The notes under the pieces were generated by a model, which had not been told where the DNA came from, did not search any database, and saw nothing but the letters and a program-made list of their open reading frames with translations. From Blastocladiella britannica (taxonomy: Eukaryota; Blastocladiomycota; Blastocladiomycetes; Blastocladiales; Blastocladiaceae): 30,224 nucleotides of DNA. Both the position numbers and the translations under genes were made by a program. The first letter of the stretch is position 1. Every line of letters starts with the position of its first letter. The stretch covers positions 1 through 30,224 of the forward strand of contig MU624703.1 in NCBI GenBank assembly GCA_025349905.2. The letters run 5' to 3'. Shown piece after piece: positions 2,323 through 30,224 of the stretch.

Positions 2323-3702
2323 TTAGTATAATGGCTTATCATCGAGCATAAAGTCCACGAGCATGGCCACCACGGCAACGTTCAAGCTGTTACCCACCAG
2401 TCGCCACCCTTGCCGCGTGGAAATGTCGTCGGGGAACGTGAACGTGGCCGGGAATCCGTGCATCGCGGCCATTTCCTCGGGCGCAAAGAACCGCAGCCCG
2501 AACCGCGACAGCGGACACGCCGGCAGGTCCGCCTCTGCCCACGCTTGCGCCGTGAGATCCGATACCAAGGCCGCGAGCCGGCCGCCGAGGGCAGCTGACG
2601 AATCATTGGTAGTCGATCGGTCCAGAGTGGGCTCGATCTTGGCCCATTCGCTGGCAGTGGTGGCGGCGCGAATACGTGCACGCGCGTCGGCATTGACGCG
2701 TTCGTGCACCGCCGGCCGCATTGCCGCGTACTCGGCGCAGGCCGCGCGCCAGTCGTCGTCCGACGTGCCGTCAATAGCAGAACCATCTGTTTCAGGCGTC
2801 ACCAGGACTGATCCGGCACCCTGAGGACGACCCGTCCCGTACGCCTTGGTGAAGCAGCAAGTGCGCGTGCCCGATGGCCACACGGGGTCGTACTGGTCGC
2901 TACGCTGTCGCCACAGATGCACAAGGGGCATGGCCAGGTCGGCGGCGCGCGCGCGGGCAGCGTCCGGGCGTAGGTACGCGGCAATGGTGTTTGATGTAGC
3001 CAATGGAGAAGGACGGTACCGGTCGACGAGCCACTGGGTGTCCACTATAAGCGACGGCGCCAAGGACAAGAGCGCAATCACGTCCGGGTACATTTCATTC
3101 GGACCAATCCCAGCATTCGCCAGCGCGTCGAGTGGTGCAATTGCTGACGCGCGTGCCGTAGCCGGAATATCGAACGGCTCACCCAACCGCGCGACCATAA
3201 AGAACCGCGGCCGCGAGTTGGGAATCCCGAGCTGCTGCGAGTTGACCACGAGCGGCGCGACATGGTACCCGCCCGCAGTCAAGGTCGCCGCCAACCGCGC
3301 AAATGCCACGTCGCGCTCAAATCCCAGCACGTTCTCGAGCAGCAGGTACCGAGGCGGCCGCTGCATTTCCGGCAGCGCGTCCAGCATGCCCAGTAGAGAG
3401 TATGCGCGCGCGTCGGTGGCACCACGACGTAAGCCCTGACGCGAGTACGGCTGGCACGGCGGGGAGAGTAGCCACGCGTCGGCGGCCAGTGCGTCCAGGT
3501 CGGCGGTCGTCAGACGCGAAATGTCGCGGTCCGAGACGTGGCAGTTGTTTTCGGTGGTATTGAACGCATGTACGCGATTGGCGTTGGCGTTGACGTCGAA
3601 CGCGTCCGACACGTGGCCGGCGGTGGGGCCACACGTAGAAGTCGACCAGCCGTACCCGAGCCCACCAATGCCCGCGTAGAATTCGAGGACCTTGTACGTC
3701 AT
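2323..3702 (-). CDS. TRDMT1: tRNA(Asp) cytosine-5 methyltransferase Dnmt2/TRDMT1
   Basis: Dnmt2-family enzymes methylate cytosine 38 in the anticodon loop of tRNA-Asp and some other tRNAs; they resemble DNA methyltransferases. The 459-residue frame has no intron. Motif I is EFYAGIGGLGYGW (about 7-19), motif IV is PPCQPYSRQG (81-90, catalytic Cys83), motif VI is LLLENVLGFE (about 121-129), and motif VIII is RPRFFMVARLG. The Dnmt2-specific CFT signature appears as CCFTKAYGTGRPQG (about 282-295), and the C-terminal motif is RLVGNSLNVAVVAML. The frame stays open upstream to 3897, but the MTYKVLEFYAGIGG start at 3702 matches where the family begins, and the upstream part is low-quality leader. It converges on NDUFAF7. 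Lack of introns contrasts with its neighbours. Confidence 0.95.
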   Translation of the reverse strand: MTYKVLEFYAGIGGLGYGWSTSTCGPTAGHVSDAFDVNANANRVHAFNTTENNCHVSDRDISRLTTADLDALAADAWLLSPPCQPYSRQGLRRGATDARAYSLLGMLDALPEMQRPPRYLLLENVLGFERDVAFARLAATLTAGGYHVAPLVVNSQQLGIPNSRPRFFMVARLGEPFDIPATARASAIAPLDALANAGIGPNEMYPDVIALLSLAPSLIVDTQWLVDRYRPSPLATSNTIAAYLRPDAARARAADLAMPLVHLWRQRSDQYDPVWPSGTRTCCFTKAYGTGRPQGAGSVLVTPETDGSAIDGTSDDDWRAACAEYAAMRPAVHERVNADARARIRAATTASEWAKIEPTLDRSTTNDSSAALGGRLAALVSDLTAQAWAEADLPACPLSRFGLRFFAPEEMAAMHGFPATFTFPDDISTRQGWRLVGNSLNVAVVAMLVDFMLDDKPLY

Positions 3703-4197
3703 CCGTTTTTTTTTTCCAACTTTTTTGGCAATTCGAAACAGGACACCTGCCTGTTCCTCGCGACGCGAACACAAATAAGGCCAATCCGCTAATCGCAGGC
3801 CGCAGCAAGGCGCAACCTCGGTCAAATCCAAAAAAATTCTCACATCACGGCCCGGGATTACGAATACGTGCAGGCCCAAAACGAGCTCGAAACACACTTC
3901 TCCCCCCAGCAGTTACAGCCACGCAACTGTTGTGGCGGCAACAAGCCGATACCATGCACCAAAAGGGTGGAGCAGCCGCTGCCCGTTCTCGGCTGCGCTG
4001 TCGCCCAAGCGTGGAGTGCGCGGTTTAAGTAGCAGCCACGGATCTCACCGTGCCTCCCGTTCATCAAACCGACAGCAACAATTGTAACAAGGATACCTCG
4101 GAAAAACACAGAGCATACAGCGAAGCACAACGAAGTCAATTTAGAATTCATTACCGTACCATTGCCAATTAAAAGTACTTGTGAAAGTTGGCCCGCC
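3703..4197. promoter_or_regulatory. Divergent intergenic region between Dnmt2 and NF-YA, with CCAAT boxes
   Basis: This 495-bp gap drives two outward-facing genes. CCAAT occurs on the plus strand at 3781-3785 and at 4165-4169, the latter about 28 bp before the NF-YA start codon. NF-YA is itself the DNA-contacting subunit of the CCAAT-binding complex, so autoregulation is possible, but this is inference. A T-rich stretch around 3705-3725 lies in the Dnmt2 leader. No other gene is apparent. Confidence 0.4.
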
Positions 4198-17317: not shown

Positions 17318-17512
17318 TTAAGGAACGACGCGCTTCACGTCGCCAAACATTTCGTGGCAGGTGCGGCACTTGCCGCCAGTGCCCTGCTTCATGGCACATT
17401 TCTTGCACAGGGTCGGGCACCCGCAGCTGGAGCCGCCGTACTCGATTGGGTCGCGCGAGCAGACAAGGCACATGGTTGGTTCTTTAATGACTTTTTTGTT
17501 TGCAGTGTCCAT
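17318..17512 (-). CDS. Small RING-like zinc-binding protein (64 aa)
   Basis: This is an intronless 64-residue protein composed almost entirely of one cysteine-rich zinc module: CLVC (15-18), CGCPTLCKKC (30-39) and CRTCHEMFG. The spacing (C-x2-C ... C-x-C-x3-C-x2-C ... C-x2-C) resembles the minimal C3HC4-type RING found in short eukaryotic proteins, so E3-type or protein-interaction function is possible. No transmembrane segment or other domain is present. The N-terminus is Lys-rich (MDTANKKVIKEP). It sits between DHCR7 and the degenerate Fanzor-like gene on the same strand. The exact family is not recognised. Confidence 0.7.
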   Translation of the reverse strand: MDTANKKVIKEPTMCLVCSRDPIEYGGSSCGCPTLCKKCAMKQGTGGKCRTCHEMFGDVKRVVP

Positions 17513-17599: not shown

Positions 17600-18990
17600 A
17601 AAAGCGATAAGGTTTTTTTAAAAGAGAATTTTACATCCTCAAATGGGTTCGTCTCGGATAACGGCACCGTCTGGACCTCGGCCAGGTGCTGAGCTAAGTT
17701 CAACCCCAGGATGGCCTGCGCCGTGTTGAAGATGTTGGCAACGGCGGGCCAGAGGTCAATCCCAATCGTCGATCGTCCACCACGGAATCCTGGGCGATTG
17801 GACCAGTCGCCGTACAGGAGCGCCTCTTTGATCAGCGCGATGAACTTCCGGATCGACGACCGCCCACCGACAACCGAGCGCCGGCGGTACGCATTCTTGA
17901 CGTAGTATGGTGTGAGGATCGGGTCCACAACCTCTGCTCCCACAAGTACGCCCGAAAGGACTCGAGACGAGAGGTGCGCGCCGAACGGCCCACCAGCGCC
18001 ATGGCTTGACTCTTGATGGTCGATGTCAACGCCAAACATGCCCCGATATCACTGCCGCTGCTTGCCGGCGTCCCTCTTGTTGCGTGAATGGTGCGCCTCG
18101 ACCGACGACCCGACGAGCCCGACCCCGACAGCTAGGAGGTTGCGCTTGCCAGGGTTGCACGGAGTGGTTGGTTGTTCAGTGCCGTGAGAACCAATGGGGA
18201 CAGTTCCGTGATGTAGGAAGGGAAGGGGTCCACGTAGTCGTCTGCGGCAGCGCCCATTTGCAGTAGTTGTACCCTCGACTTGCCGTACAGCTCGTCCTTG
18301 ACGTAACCCGGGTTGGCAGCGAACCCGTTGGTCGTGATCGAGTTGTTGAACAGCAGATGCTGCTTGGCACCGACAGGGCCGATCTTGAGGGTGGCCACAG
18401 CATTGCGGATGGTGGTTTTGCCGTTCTTGATCTTGATGTTGGTCAATGCCATCCACACAGCAGTCCGGACAACGGCCGGTTGCCAGAGCGTGAGCAATAT
18501 ATCAGTGTCGATGCGAATGTGGCCAGGAATGAACGAGGTCCGAAGGGGCAACGGCGAGGGCAGGGGGCTCCAGAGGCCCCCAAGCACATGATTCATGTGA
18601 ATCATGTACGGGAGATAGCGCCACGGGCGAGCCTTGAGGTCGTAAAGGCGGCCCCGATTCCCAACGACACGTGGCACAAAGACGGACAGCAGCGCTTGGA
18701 TCTCGGCCGGGCAGATCTGACATCGATAAAAAAACATCAGTCTTGTGTACCTCGGCGCCATTGAGAAGCGCACGCCTTCATCGCTCGCTTTCGTGCAACG
18801 TCAGTGGCATAGGCCGGGTTGGCTGCTATCACCTCTTCCATGCGCTCTGCAACCAGATTGCGTGACATGCGCTTGACGTACTCCTCGAAATACATCCAAA
18901 CGAACGTGGTTCGTGCAGTTGGTTACCATCGTTCCGGCGCTGCCATCAAAGAAACGAACGAGTCCACCACCGGGGCGGGTCTAGATCACG
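17600..18990 (-). pseudogene. Degenerate Fanzor-like (eukaryotic TnpB/OrfB-type) RuvC nuclease gene
   Basis: Coding-like pieces in three frames line up, in order, with what I recall of Fanzor-like proteins. Piece A (18751-18895) gives MYFEEYVKRMSRNLVAERME, preceded in frame by a TAA. Piece B (about 18134-18731) gives CPAEIQALLSVFVPRVVGN, then LPLRTSFIPGHIRIDTDILL and FNNSITTNGFAA. Piece C, in a new frame (18049-18170), gives NPGKRNLLAVG, the position of the first RuvC motif, where Asp is expected. After an in-frame TGA, piece D (about 17625-18039) gives PYYVKNAYRRRS and LLYGDWSNRPGFRGGRSTIG. The usual EFRTSKTC-type zinc-finger and final RuvC segment is not recognisable. At least two frame changes and two stops argue for a dead copy. 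Family members are RNA-guided nucleases related to transposon TnpB. Assignment is from motif memory, not a search. Confidence 0.55.
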
Positions 18991-20536: not shown

Positions 20537-23168
20537 TCAATCCAAGCGACGCAGCACGTACACGTACGCCTCTCCCAGCAACGGCACCGGATCTGGGTTC
20601 ACCACCACCCGGTCATCGTTGATCATGATCCAGCGCGCCGACTCGTTGTCGGTGACATGTGCAATGTAGTGGCCGCACAACATCGACGGGCCCTTGTGGT
20701 TGATGAACGCCTCGACCACGTAACGGGCATCGGTCGCGGCGCCGTCCACGTCACTGCGCGCCCGATTGAGATCCTCGGACGACGACGGCGGCACAGCGGC
20801 CGCGGAAGGACCGTCGTCGTCAGTTGCGTCCGGGTGCGAAAACACCCACTCGATCGCGCGCTCCACGTTGCCCGCCGTCTCGCGCAGCGCCCGCACCGCC
20901 TGGCCGCGGGAAAAGCCCATGTCCATGAGATTGGCCACCGCGCCCTCGTCCACCGGAACCGCGGCCGCCTTACCGCCACTCGCCAGAGACCGCTGGATCG
21001 CATCCTCTTCGGCCTCGTCCACGTCGTCGGGACTAGTAAACACCCAGTTGAGGGCGGCATCGAGCCCACCGCCAGGGTTCAGACGCAGGGCCCGGCGGGC
21101 TTTACCGCGCGGCACGCCAAACTGCAGCAGCTGCACGAGCTCCTCCGAGTCCGGGGCCGACTCGCCCGCCATGGTGCCTTCTTGCGCGCACGGATCGGCG
21201 CCATCGAGCTTGAGCGCGTCGGCGGGAGGCGCGGGCGTGTGCAAAAAGTGCAGGGGAACCGCCGCGTGCGACTCGGCGCCGGGCCACTGGATGTGTACGC
21301 TCGACTTTTTCGGCACCCAGTTGTCGTACGTGAACCGCTGCGCTGTCAGGACCAGGTACTTGGGGAAGGTCTTGAATCCGGTGGTTCTGTTTTTTTTTTT
21401 TTTTTTTTGGGTGTATGAGTTGTGAAGTCAACCAGTGAAAAGAAATGATAACGCACTTGACACCAAGGACCCGAGGGCCGCAGTTTGGGCACTCAAACTC
21501 CACGTGCTCGCGCATGGCCTGCTGCAAGCAGTCGGTCGCCGACACCGTGACCGGCGGGCTGCCCGCAGTCTTGTCGGCTTCCAGCGCGCGCTTGAGTGCC
21601 TCATCAGGCACCATGATGTTGAGCGAGGAGGCGGTGGTCTCGGAGGCGTTGATGCCAAGACATGAAGGGCACTGAATCACCTGCTGCTGCGTAAAGTCAA
21701 AGACATGGGTTGGGCTGGAGCCCTGGCGCCGCTCCTGCTGCGCAACCTGCTTGACCACATATGACCAAAACTCGGACGCGTCCTGCTGCTTCATGCCTGC
21801 AAACTCCTTGTGGCCCTTGGCAATCATGTGCTTGAACATGGCGGGCGTCACCGCGCCATTGTCGGGGCGTGGCGCCGAGGGCTCGCCCGGGACAGTGGGT
21901 GCAGTGGCAGTCGGGTCCACGGGACAGCCGCCCTTGGCCACGGCAGTGGCAATCTTGGCCCACTGACACTGCCAACAGTCCGAGTGCGATGCGGCAGAGC
22001 ACTGTGCGATGTGCGCTTGCGCAGCGTCGCCGCCGTAGCGCTCGCGGAACTCGGGAATGCGCAGCAGGCACTGGATGACGGACGCCATGTAGCACGAGTT
22101 GCCAAGGTTCTTGAGACCCAGCAGGCCCGGCTTGCCCACAGGCGTCATGAGCGCGCCGTCGGCCGAGGTCATGTCAAACTCGAACTTGAGGTTCTGCTCG
22201 ATCTGCAGCTCCACCAGCGATTTCTCCGTCTTGATGGAGGAGGCCAAGTTGACCCCAAAGTGAGCCATGTGGTCGGCCAGGTACGGATCAATGCGCTCGT
22301 CGTCGCACGCGTAGCAATACAGATCCGCGGTGCCCTCGGGGGTGATGGTGCCGAGCTTGACCGCCACCGCATGGCCAGGCGCGCTCGTGGCGTGGGCGAG
22401 CGCGTGGCCGTTGCCCGAGACTCCACCGAATTGCGCACGGCCGCATCCGAGGTGGCCGCACCCGAGGCACAGCCACAGGTTCTCGCGGAGATCGCATTGG
22501 CCGCAGTGCGCGGTGGTCGCGTCCAGTTTCACGCTCGCGGTTTGCTCGAGACAGACCGTGTGTTCGCAGGCCTCGAGCTCGAGTTCCCAGGCCTTGACTT
22601 CGTTCTGGAGGCTGGCGGACGACGCCTTGACGACGGCGGCCACGGCATCCGCGATCTTTTTGATTTTTTTTTTTTGCAATGAGTCGTTTATGTGTGCCAT
22701 CGAATAATGGAGACATGGACGTACCAGGCCGGTTGGCTCAGAGATCAGTTGGTGGTTCGGGCACGCGTAGCACCGGACGGTTGAGCGAACGTCGTACTTT
22801 TCGGCGTCCGACTCGGCAGCAATGGCCAGTCGGGCGATCTTTGCGGGTGGCGGGGTGCCGTCGTCGACGCGGCGCGGCTTGAGCGATCGAGTCAGGTTTA
22901 CGGCAAGTGCGTGGCCGGTACGGGCGGCGTGCGCGCTCGCATGCCCATCAGCTCCGGGGCAGCCCGTGTTGAAGCAGGTCAGGCACACATCCACGCCGTT
23001 CGCGTCGTCCTATACCCCATTTTTGCGTGAGTGAAAATATGAAGGTAAGCGATCAAGGTGGATGCGCACCCACGAGTGAAAGCACTGGGTGCACTCGTCC
23101 TTGTAAATGTTCTGGCCCGACGGTGGGACGCGCGCGGCGGACGGAGCGGAGACGTGAGGGCAGCTCAT
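20537..23168 (-). CDS. UBP14: Ubiquitin carboxyl-terminal hydrolase USP5/UBP14 (isopeptidase T)
   Basis: USP5/UBP14 recycles unanchored polyubiquitin chains in cytosol and nucleus. Exons are 23070-23168, 22725-23009, 21457-22655 and 20537-21386, giving 810 residues (yeast 781, human 858). In order: an N-terminal cryptic zinc finger (MSCPHV...SGQNIYKDECTQC, then VCLTCFNTGC...HAARTGH); the ZnF-UBP (CGQCDLRENLWLCLGCGHLG to YCYACDDERIDP, about 179-252); the catalytic Cys box GLKNLGNSCYMASVIQCL (Cys316); two UBA domains (EELVQLLQFGVPRGKARRAL and VANLMDMGFSRGQAVRAL); and the His box MLCGHYIAHV (His767) with WIMINDDRV. All catalytic residues are present. Intron 3 has an A19 run just before its acceptor and intron 2 an A11 run. 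Alternative start sites are not evident. Confidence 0.96.
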
Positions 23169-24587
23169 ATTATCTTATTCTTTTTGATGATGTTATAAAA
23201 AGAGTGGGCTGAGCTTTCGAAAGCTTCCAAGTCATCTGCGATCTCGTCCGCTATGCAGGCACTACAACCAATTGTGCGACTGGTGCAGCAGAGAGTGGAG
23301 ACCGTTTCTGGCTCCGGGAGAGAAAAGGAAAAAACTACGGCGACGCCGCCACCGCCTTGGCTGCCGCCGTCTCGGCAGCCTTGACCTTGGCTGCTGTCTT
23401 CGCCTCTTGCGCCCTCAACCGCGTGCCCACGAGACTCTCCACCGCGGCGACCAGCTTGGGGTCCCCCTCCGCCGCCGCACGCATGCCAGAACTCGGTAAT
23501 AACGTTCGTCGTTTTTTTTTTTTTTCTGCGCTGGCTGTTTACCTTTTCACTTTTTTTCCAGCAGCAGCGACGATCGCATGGAGGTACTGGTGGCAAAAAA
23601 AACAACAGCCATTCCATCCAGCAATATGGGTGGGTTTACAGCAGCGATTACGTCCGTACCATTGCACTCATTGGCGATCTTTGAGCCCTTGGCGACCATC
23701 AACAGTGCCAACATCACGGATCTGAACCGCCTCCCAACGCAATCGCTCGAGAAGACAATGGTAACAGAATGAGTGGAGTGCCCACGCTCGCCGACACTAC
23801 CGCCAACATAGCGCTGGACACAACAGATGCCATGATCACTGACGAGAACGGCCACCCCACAATCCATTCGTTGAGCATCTAGAATCACTCTCATCGCCTG
23901 CTGATCTCGTGTGACGTTCCCATGGCATACCCAACCGAACTTGGCCCATATTCATCAAGGCATTTTTGAGTTTTGAGCCCATTTCTTTTAACCGTCCTTT
24001 ACTTTTACTCTTCGCCTTATTTCTTTTGTGCACGCGCCGATCTTGTCAATGAGCAGATGGCCTGATCGTCCTCCCATTTGCTTGGTGCTCTTTTGCTTTA
24101 TGTTTATCGTGTCGAGCGCAGTTGAGTGCGTCAGGTGCAGTCGAGAGGCTTGTTGCGGGTGCGGCCTTTCTGGTTTATTTGATCCTCAGTCTCGAGCATA
24201 TGGCCAACATGTTTATTTGTTATGTATAGGTTTCTTTTTGTGTGCGATCAAGTTTGAGCAGGATTTGGATGCGATCGAACGTGTGTATTTGCAAAAGCGA
24301 ATGTATGAACATTTATATATGGTGATTTTGGGAATTGGATTCAGATTCGGCTGGATTTTGGAGCTAAATTCCGCTGGAAAAGTGTTTTGCAAGTCCACTG
24401 GAAAAGGTGATCAAGTTTGATTCCTGAGGAAAATGAAGAAAACATCCAAAGGAATCAAGGCAGCGGCAACGGCTTAGCCAGGCAACAATCCAGCGGAAAA
24501 AGTGGATTTTTATTGCGGAATCGGACTTGGGTTAAAGTTCTGGGTGCCGATAACATTGGCGTCTTTACGGAATACAAGATTTGCGCC
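23169..24587. other. Poorly resolved region with coding-like fragments
   Basis: No complete gene can be assembled here. On the minus strand 23335-23484 is a 49-codon G/C-third-position frame ending VKAAETAAAKAVAASP; it looks like the end of a lysine/alanine-rich protein, but no upstream exon fits. On the plus strand a strong intron-like segment (GT at 23497, pyrimidine tract, CAG ending about 23562) overlaps it. Plus-strand frames at 23578-23772 (ITSVPLHSLAIFEPLATINS) and 23681-23882 (DTTDAMITDENGHPTIHSLS) look like two frames of one decayed gene. From 23900 the sequence is more A/T-rich. A 123-residue plus frame from 24049 starts with a hydrophobic leader and a Cys cluster (VECVRCSREACCGCG), but its codon use is unlike the neighbours. 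Confidence 0.3.
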
Positions 24588-24863: not shown

Positions 24864-25772
24864 CGAAGCGTCCATTTTGAGTTGGATATTTTTTTTAATG
24901 GAGTTAAGGCGCGTTTTGGTTGAGGTCTTGAAAAAAAAACCGTTTGTTGGTCTCAAAGCACTTCACCGCGAGGTACAAAAGGGACGGCCTCGACCGCTCT
25001 CTCTCTCTCTCTTTCTCTCTCCCACCGTCTTTTTCATTATGTGACCAACCAGTACCGGATGGTAGCAAGAGCCGACCACCACAGGGTACGATCCGCTCTC
25101 TTTATCATTTTCACTCGCGCACCGCGGCCACGAGTACCGCGTGGTCAAGTTATTTTTATTTCTTTCTTTCTTTCTGTCTCGACCCCGAGCGTGATATTTC
25201 CATTGATTCTCGTTCTTAAAAGATGAGCAATGACTGAGGGCAACATATCCTTGGATCGCGTGTTGTATTTGGTATTTTTTCCCCTTCACTTCACATTGTA
25301 TTTTTGATAGGTCGAGAATAAGCAACAAGCGAGCGCGGATCAAGGCCAAGATCAAGCAGGAATCCATGATCAAGGACATATGTGAGCGGTTGATGATGAC
25401 GAGATGAGTGGAAATAGCTGGAATATAAGAAATCTATTGGAAATACTAGATCCGAGCGCTGGAGCTGGAAAGCTGGGTTGGCGGAATGACATTGGAAACC
25501 CGGCCTGGATATCCATTGGGTATCGTGGGGCCGAGGAAAGATCATGGATGGACCGTCCGGAATATCGACGAGAAAGCCGGACTGGTTTGACATTGGAAAA
25601 AAAAATGGGCATTGGAATTCGGATGGAAGGATTGGGACACAATAAATCCATGCAAAGTAAATTGGACAGCGATTTCCATGGCAGGCTAACTTGGAATTCC
25701 ATCTCCAAATCCGGTTTTAGTGCGCAGCCGTCTATCACAAAAACGAAGAAGGAAAAAAAACAAGGGACATCA
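24864..25772. other. Non-coding stretch with pyrimidine microsatellites and TGGAA-like motifs
   Basis: I see no convincing gene. A CT-repeat lies at 24997-25023 and a TTTC-repeat at about 25155-25172. From about 25380 to 25700 the plus strand is dense in short related words (attggaa, tggaat, ggaatcc), echoing 24350-24540, which suggests diverged repeat-derived sequence. A plus frame of about 120 codons passes through it (GNSWNIRNLLEILDPSAGAG), but its codon use is unlike the flanking genes. Confidence 0.35.
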
Positions 25773-29725: not shown

Positions 29726-29921
29726 TTTGCGATTCTCCACGGCTGGGAGAGTCGGAACAAAATCCGGCGGGGAACAGTCAAAAAGCTTCAGGATAAACAG
29801 GACAAGAAACCACAGGAAACTGCAAATTTGACCATGAGCGCGCGTTCGGGTACAGCGGGCTGCGCCCAAACCTTGCGTGCCTGTGACCACCACGGCCTCC
29901 ACCGCCGCCACCACCGCCACC
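29726..29921. promoter_or_regulatory. Divergent upstream region of the PXA gene and the right-edge gene
   Basis: This gap of about 196 bp lies between outward-facing candidate starts. The right part (29880-29921) is a low-complexity CCACC/GCC run. No specific element is recognised. Confidence 0.35.
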
Positions 29922-30224
29922 ATGTCCGCTCGTGGTCTGAACGTCATCCACCGCCAACTCGGCCACCAACTCGGCCACCACCAACGAGACCACCACCACC
30001 AACATCAAAATTGACGCGTACCGCAAGGACACCAACAAGATGTACCACGAGATTAGCGGCCACAGCTTCAGGAAGCTGATCGGGTCGGATCCGGGTGCGA
30101 CCAAGGTGCAGTCGCTGGTGATCGTGGAGACCGACGGCACGTCGAGGGACCGCGCGCTCTTGCGGAAGGAGTACATCCACGGGCGCGGCGACAACATCGC
30201 GAACGCCAAGCGCAAGGCGTTGGA
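29922..30224 (+). CDS. Unrecognised protein, 5' part (runs off right edge; frame change near 29940)
   Basis: From 29941 to the edge one plus frame is fully open and nearly every codon ends in G or C. It encodes a Thr/Ser/Asn stretch and then a hydrophilic region: NIKIDAYRKDTNKMYHEISG, GSDPGATKVQSLVIVETDGT and LLRKEYIHGRGDNIANAKRK. I do not recognise the family. The start is unclear. The ATG at 29922 (gccaccATG, good context) is in a frame that would need a +1 shift at about 29940 to join it, because the downstream frame has a TGA at 29938-29940. Either an upstream intron is missed, or there is a one-base sequence error or lesion. The ATG at 29834 begins in the third frame. Confidence 0.5.

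What the first reader, a model, noticed from the sequence alone, without database searches (positions are those of the whole stretch)
17600..18990. Relic of a Fanzor-like RNA-guided nuclease gene
Ordered fragments on the minus strand match several blocks I associate with Fanzor/TnpB-like eukaryotic ORFs: LPLRTSFIPGHIRIDTDILL, FNNSITTNGFAA, NPGKRNLLAVG and LLYGDWSN...GGRSTIG. They occur in the right order with about the right spacing, but in three frames. Fanzors are the eukaryotic counterparts of TnpB, so a decayed copy implies active relatives may exist elsewhere in this genome, with guide (omega) RNAs next to them.
Basis: partly seen in the sequence, partly recalled or inferred. Interest (0 to 1): 0.75.

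Follow-up and report, generated by a model that had tools for sequence, protein, structure and literature searches.

The report
Decayed Fanzor1 nuclease gene, fungus
A stretch of this fungal genome is the broken remains of a Fanzor1 gene (a eukaryotic RNA-guided DNA-cutting enzyme); the relic is ordinary, but better-preserved relatives, and repeated element ends that may encode guide RNAs, lie elsewhere in the same genome.

Summary
Minus-strand sequence at about 18910-17644 is a decayed Fanzor1 gene. It aligns in order with two paralogues in the same genome (C4, C40; best piece 96 bits, best of 50 shuffles 29.6), and its 213-residue piece alone hits the solved Guillardia theta Fanzor1 (E 3e-9). 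The genome is that of Blastocladiella britannica. The relic is dead: the RuvC-I aspartate reads Asn (NPGK), there is a frameshift (-7 nt), an in-frame stop, and a deletion that removes the RuvC-II glutamate, zinc finger and RuvC-III aspartate. The four named blocks lie in two frames, not three; a third frame appears only upstream and fits a 34-nt GT...AG intron where paralogues also break frame. Family 1 has matches on 41 other contigs; C4 and C40 keep the catalytic motifs. A second Fanzor family exists, and the window's right edge (29738-30224) is the 5' part of one such element. In both families conserved right ends stop sharply at unique flanks: omega-RNA candidates, unproven. New member of a known kind.

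The parts
17644..18910 (-). Relic of a Fanzor1 gene (family 1), 5' truncated or decayed upstream of 18910
   Evidence: tblastn of C4/C40; piece 18135-18773 to GtFz1 E 3e-9
18752..18910 (-). N-terminal block, matches residues 245-297 of the C4 N-terminal ORF
   Evidence: 45% identity, E 1e-8
18717..18750 (-). Probable 34-nt GT...AG intron at a position where paralogues also change frame
   Evidence: sequence; inferred, no transcript
18198..18641 (-). Block with DLKARPWRYLPYM, LPLRTSFIPGHIRIDTDILL and FNNSITTNGFAA; lacks 51 residues that C4 has (also short in P0002-P0005, so perhaps not a lesion)
   Evidence: E 1e-23
18157..18197 (-). Frameshift: 41 nt where C4 has 16 residues (48 nt), net -7
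   Evidence: arithmetic on HSP coordinates; C40 gives the same -7
18118..18156 (-). RuvC-I block NPGKRNLLAVGVG; C4 and C40 have DPGK
18049..18051 (-). In-frame stop codon inside the coding block
17761..17823 (-). LLYGDWSNRPGFRGGRSTIG block (RuvC-II region)
17746..17760 (-). Deletion junction: 5 residues where C4 has 88, which hold NEFRTS (RuvC-II Glu), the zinc finger and NRD (RuvC-III Asp)
   Evidence: against alignment A1
17644..17745 (-). C-terminal/right-end block, 79-83% DNA identity to C576, C618 and C84
29738..30224 (+). 5' part of a second-family Fanzor element, left end to contig end; open frame with SDPG at about 30085-30096
   Evidence: 85-96% DNA identity to C37, C215 and one copy in C3; 74% and 69% to a second C3 copy and C2; frame
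24193..24514 (-). Sequence shared with the 5' region of family-2 elements, inside a larger repeat
   Evidence: 84-94% identity to C37, C3, C215; repeat copies

Best explanation
A dead copy of a Fanzor1 gene. Its ancestor belonged to a multicopy, probably mobile family in Blastocladiella britannica. By homology to tested Fanzor1 enzymes it would have bound an omega RNA made from the element's right end, used the adjacent flank as guide, and cut matching DNA with a RuvC domain. Shown here: homology, order of blocks, lesions, paralogues with the catalytic motifs, repeated right ends. Inferred: mobility, RNA binding, guide use and cutting by the paralogues. The relic itself cannot cut: of the three RuvC catalytic positions one is changed and two are gone.
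For: Paralogue alignment far above 50 shuffles; direct hit of a window piece to GtFz1, E 3e-9; profile A1 to three solved Fanzor1 proteins at 9e-55 or better; C40 alone to GtFz1 at 5.5e-22; C4 and C40 show DPG, NEFRTS with the Glu seven positions before the first zinc-finger Cys, four Cys and NRD, which fits the DPG and alternative-Glu fingerprint given for Fanzors in PMC10711439 (section read); lesion map; shared frame break upstream.
Against: No Pfam match for 3 of 3 pieces. The 149-residue C-terminal piece alone finds no Fanzor among PDB sequences, so its assignment rests on the paralogues. Structure prediction of P0001 failed (mean pLDDT 32.9), so there is no fold-level test. The N-terminal part was not found beyond 18910.
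Confidence: 0.97

Rival explanations
1. A working, intron-containing gene whose exons look like pieces.
For: One of the two frame changes does coincide with a GT...AG stretch at a position shared by paralogues.
Against: At the second frame change only 41 nt lie between blocks against 48 in C4, no room for an intron; an in-frame stop follows; the catalytic D is N and the segment with Glu, zinc finger and RD is missing.
Confidence: 0.02
2. A relic of TnpB or Fanzor2 rather than Fanzor1.
For: Same superfamily; the Pfam Cas12f1-like TNB model rings weakly on C4 and C40 (E 0.18 and 0.07).
Against: Profile hits are to three Fanzor1 structures with large margins; the next PDB matches are at E 0.72 or worse.
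Confidence: 0.01
3. Chance resemblance.
For: Weak pieces in several frames are a usual source of false calls.
Against: 95.9 bits against a best of 29.6 in 50 shuffles; DNA-level identity of 79-86% to other copies.
Confidence: 0.001

Closest known systems
Guillardia theta Fanzor1 (GtFz1, PDB 9cer)
   Same: Best solved relative of both the window piece (E 3e-9) and C40 (5.5e-22); same order of blocks, DPG, zinc finger
   Different: The window copy is changed or deleted at all three catalytic positions; WWNRD in C40 reads WWNRN in the aligned GtFz1 chain
Spizellomyces punctatus Fanzor1 and its Spu-1 elements (PMC10432273, two sections read)
   Same: Multicopy Fanzor1 with partial copies and 'ghost' elements that keep the ends and lose the gene; omega RNA from the right end ending at the element boundary
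   Different: There the RNA was sequenced; here it is only a conserved right end; terminal inverted repeats here are short or unclear
Allomyces macrogynus Fanzor1 families (table entry seen as a passage of PMC3627910)
   Same: Fanzor1 in a fungus that I recall to be of the same phylum (Blastocladiomycota)
   Different: Sequences not compared here

Membership tests
Fanzor1 (window relic) | Significant sequence similarity to a characterised Fanzor1 | tested here: met
   GtFz1 E 3e-9 for window 18135-18773; not met by the C-terminal piece alone
Fanzor1 (window relic) | RuvC-I DPG motif | tested here: not met
   NPG in the relic; DPG in C4 and C40: read as loss by decay
Fanzor1 (window relic) | Alternative Glu before a C4 zinc finger, then RD | tested here: not met
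   Segment deleted in the relic
Fanzor1 (paralogues C4, C40) | DPG, alternative Glu, C4 zinc finger, RD | tested here: met
   D247, P248, G249, E481, C488, C491, C534, C539, R546, D547 of C40 are invariant in the 6 rows of A1
Fanzor1 (paralogues C4, C40) | Fanzor fold | tested here: inconclusive
   AlphaFold2 model of P0001, mean pLDDT 32.9; no fold search run
Fanzor element | Omega RNA from the right end, guide from the flank | not testable with these tools
   Only candidates: conserved right ends with differing flanks, 17 aligned in family 1 and 12 in family 2
Fanzor element | Carried in a transposon with defined ends | tested here: inconclusive
   Right ends sharp; left ends of family 1 and target duplications not settled; C37 shows a possible CAATACA duplication by eye

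The most novel reading that the evidence does not exclude
B. britannica carries two active or recently active Fanzor1 systems whose right ends encode two new omega RNAs, and which spread short ghost elements (family 2) and chimeras with an antisense piece of a LINE-like ORF (family 1, C92 type) in trans; the window relic is an old member of the first.
Probability: 0.35. Interest if true: 0.5.

Novelty: new member of a known kind. Interest (0 to 1): 0.3.

Why it matters
A dead Fanzor1 copy is ordinary: partial copies are described in Spizellomyces (PMC10432273, section read). It matters as a pointer to a fungal genome with at least two Fanzor families, paralogues that keep the catalytic motifs, and repeated right ends that give testable guide-RNA boundaries in what I recall to be an early-branching fungal lineage.

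Tried and rejected
Pfam on the pieces: nothing. Rfam and tRNA scans of the window: nothing; Rfam on six element loci: nothing at gathering score. Structure of P0001 with a five-row alignment: uninformative. Covariation: 1 of 24 pairs (family 1) and 0 of 40 pairs (family 2) with a double change kept, the copies being 91-93% alike; so structure is not shown by covariation. Target-site duplications: read by eye, not consistent, not claimed. LINE link: a LINE-like RNase H ORF lies downstream of C4, and an antisense piece of the neighbouring ORF lies upstream of Fanzor sequence in C92, C224, C87, C274, C107, C167 and C561; I thought of retrotransposon-type 5' truncation (C184, C306, C359 and C76 begin inside the gene) but looked for no further support. 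A search for Fanzor with pseudogen gave 3 papers, none by title on Fanzor relics (listing only).

Full report
Observation. tblastn of the C4 and C40 frames against the whole window gives 95.9 and 94.4 bits for the piece 18647-18177 and 73.2 and 75.1 bits for 18099-17728; besides the short linked NPGK pieces (23.5 and 22.7 bits) every other listed match has at most 26.9 bits (C4) and 23.5 bits (C40). The best of 50 mononucleotide shuffles is 29.6 bits. The named blocks lie in two frames. A block upstream, 18910-18752, lies in the third.

What it is. The same genome holds paralogues of both halves. C40 has an open frame of 586 and C4 one of 574 residues, each with a separate N-terminal frame upstream. 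The C40 protein matches GtFz1 at 5.5e-22, SpuFz1 at 1.9e-10 and PpFz1 at 3.5e-10. A profile of C40, C4 and four database proteins (P0002-P0005, sources ena, jgi, metaclust) matches the three at 2.2e-60, 3e-58 and 8.8e-55. The window's 213-residue piece alone matches GtFz1 at 3.1e-9; the 149-residue piece alone matches no Fanzor. No Pfam family is found for the three pieces. The database copy of C40's own protein is hypothetical protein BC828DRAFT_436528 of Blastocladiella britannica (P0001, 100% identical), which names the organism.

Lesions. (1) RuvC-I reads NPGK where C4 and C40 have DPGK. (2) Between the FNNS piece and NPGK there are 41 nt where C4 has 16 residues: net -7, a frameshift; C40 gives the same figure. 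(3) Stop at 18051-18049. (4) After GGRSTIG five residues lead to AVANIF; C4 has 88 there, with NEFRTS, the zinc finger and NRD. (5) 51 residues of C4 after LWEP are missing in line; this stretch is also short in P0002-P0005, so it may be family variation. One frame change is probably not a lesion: at 18750-18717 there is a 34-nt GT...AG stretch where C4, C40, C119, C514 and C525 also break frame at an AG (by eye).

Place. The relic lies between a 64-residue Cys-rich ORF (17318-17512) and minus-strand ORFs at 19.4-19.9 kb. Its nearest DNA relatives are C611 (86% over 123 bp), C576, C618 and C84 (79-83% over 97-103 bp) and C87 (77% over 120 bp). C576, C618 and C87 matches run to the contig's end, C611's family match begins 37 bases from it, and C576 and C618 stop at the same base of the repeat, as expected where an assembly breaks in a repeat. 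Counting contigs named, family 1 has matches on 41 contigs besides the window's; many are short, and only the best candidates are scored, so this is a lower bound.

Right ends, family 1. A C92-type query gave 39 rows. I fetched 18 stretches (17 from this query, C450) and aligned 15 of them with C92 and C224: 17 sequences, 93% mean column identity. Their identity stops at ATAAA, after which the flanks differ; the end points in A3 were set by that motif. The block begins in the last codons and runs past the stop. Folding: z -3.0 for C107, only -0.8 for C224, and the antisense strand of C107 gives -2.1, so the fold is weak evidence. The window's own block does not fold better than shuffles (z +1.1).

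Second family. The TNB model finds seven loci, on contigs without family-1 hits. C37 carries DPG, DEYRTS, four Cys and DRD in one frame (TNB 7e-10). C2's frame alone matches SpuFz1 only at E 0.017, so the assignment of family 2 rests on the motifs and the TNB model. A C37 query gave 73 rows with 40 of 140 candidates scored; 19 rows, C37 included, reach query position 1943 or beyond, near the right end at about 1963. Eight short stretches (501-661 bp, too short for the gene) were fetched: 8 of 8 have the right end and 6 of 8 a recognisable left end, in C39 and C6 altered. The last 133 nt, sense strand, fold at z -2.3 (C37), -3.3 (C248), -3.7 (C39) and -1.7 (C270); the antisense strand, tested for C37 alone, gives -1.0, and three other stretches of C37 give -0.6, +0.1 and +0.3. 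The final stem closes on the element's last bases, CACG...CGTG, and the flank starts there. In C37 the block overlaps the end of the open frame. This is what an omega RNA could look like, but no RNA was seen.

The window's right edge. 29738-30224 matches the left end and 5' part of family-2 elements at 85-96% in the closest copies and holds a frame with SDPGATK; the contig ends there. It starts close upstream of an ATG of a minus-strand ORF. A further stretch, 24193-24514, shares the 5' region of family-2 elements and lies in a larger repeat of unknown kind.

Known or new. Fanzor1 is known (PMC3627910, abstract and passages; PMC10432273, two sections; PMC10711439, one section). Partial and ghost copies are known in Spizellomyces. 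A search of the held library for Fanzor with Blastocladi gave 0 papers; 'Blastocladiella britannica' gave 3 and Blastocladiella with transposable element 8, none by title on Fanzors (listings only). Most subscription papers are not held, so this is not proof of absence in print. The verdict is a new, dead member of a known kind.

Noticed in passing
window 29738-30224: 5' part of a second-family Fanzor element running off the contig end, close upstream of a minus-strand ORF start.
   Followed up: partly
window 23233-24546: Repeat of unknown kind with many copies (C111 over nearly all of it; C258, C120, C549 and others over parts) that shares about 320 bp with the 5' region of family-2 Fanzor elements.
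   Followed up: partly
window 25254-25731: Another repeat, 77-90% identical to stretches on many contigs, present as an inverted pair in C499.
   Followed up: no
L036:3746-4998: LINE-like ORF with an RNase H domain (Pfam E 7e-9) downstream of the C4 Fanzor gene; an antisense piece of the neighbouring ORF sits upstream of Fanzor sequence in C92, C224, C274, C107, C167, C561 and C87.
   Followed up: partly
window 2326-3897, minus strand: C-5 cytosine methylase domain ORF (PF00145, E 4e-29).
   Followed up: no
window 20540-22994, minus strand: Zn-finger plus ubiquitin hydrolase and UBA domains in two overlapping frames, probably one intron-containing gene.
   Followed up: no
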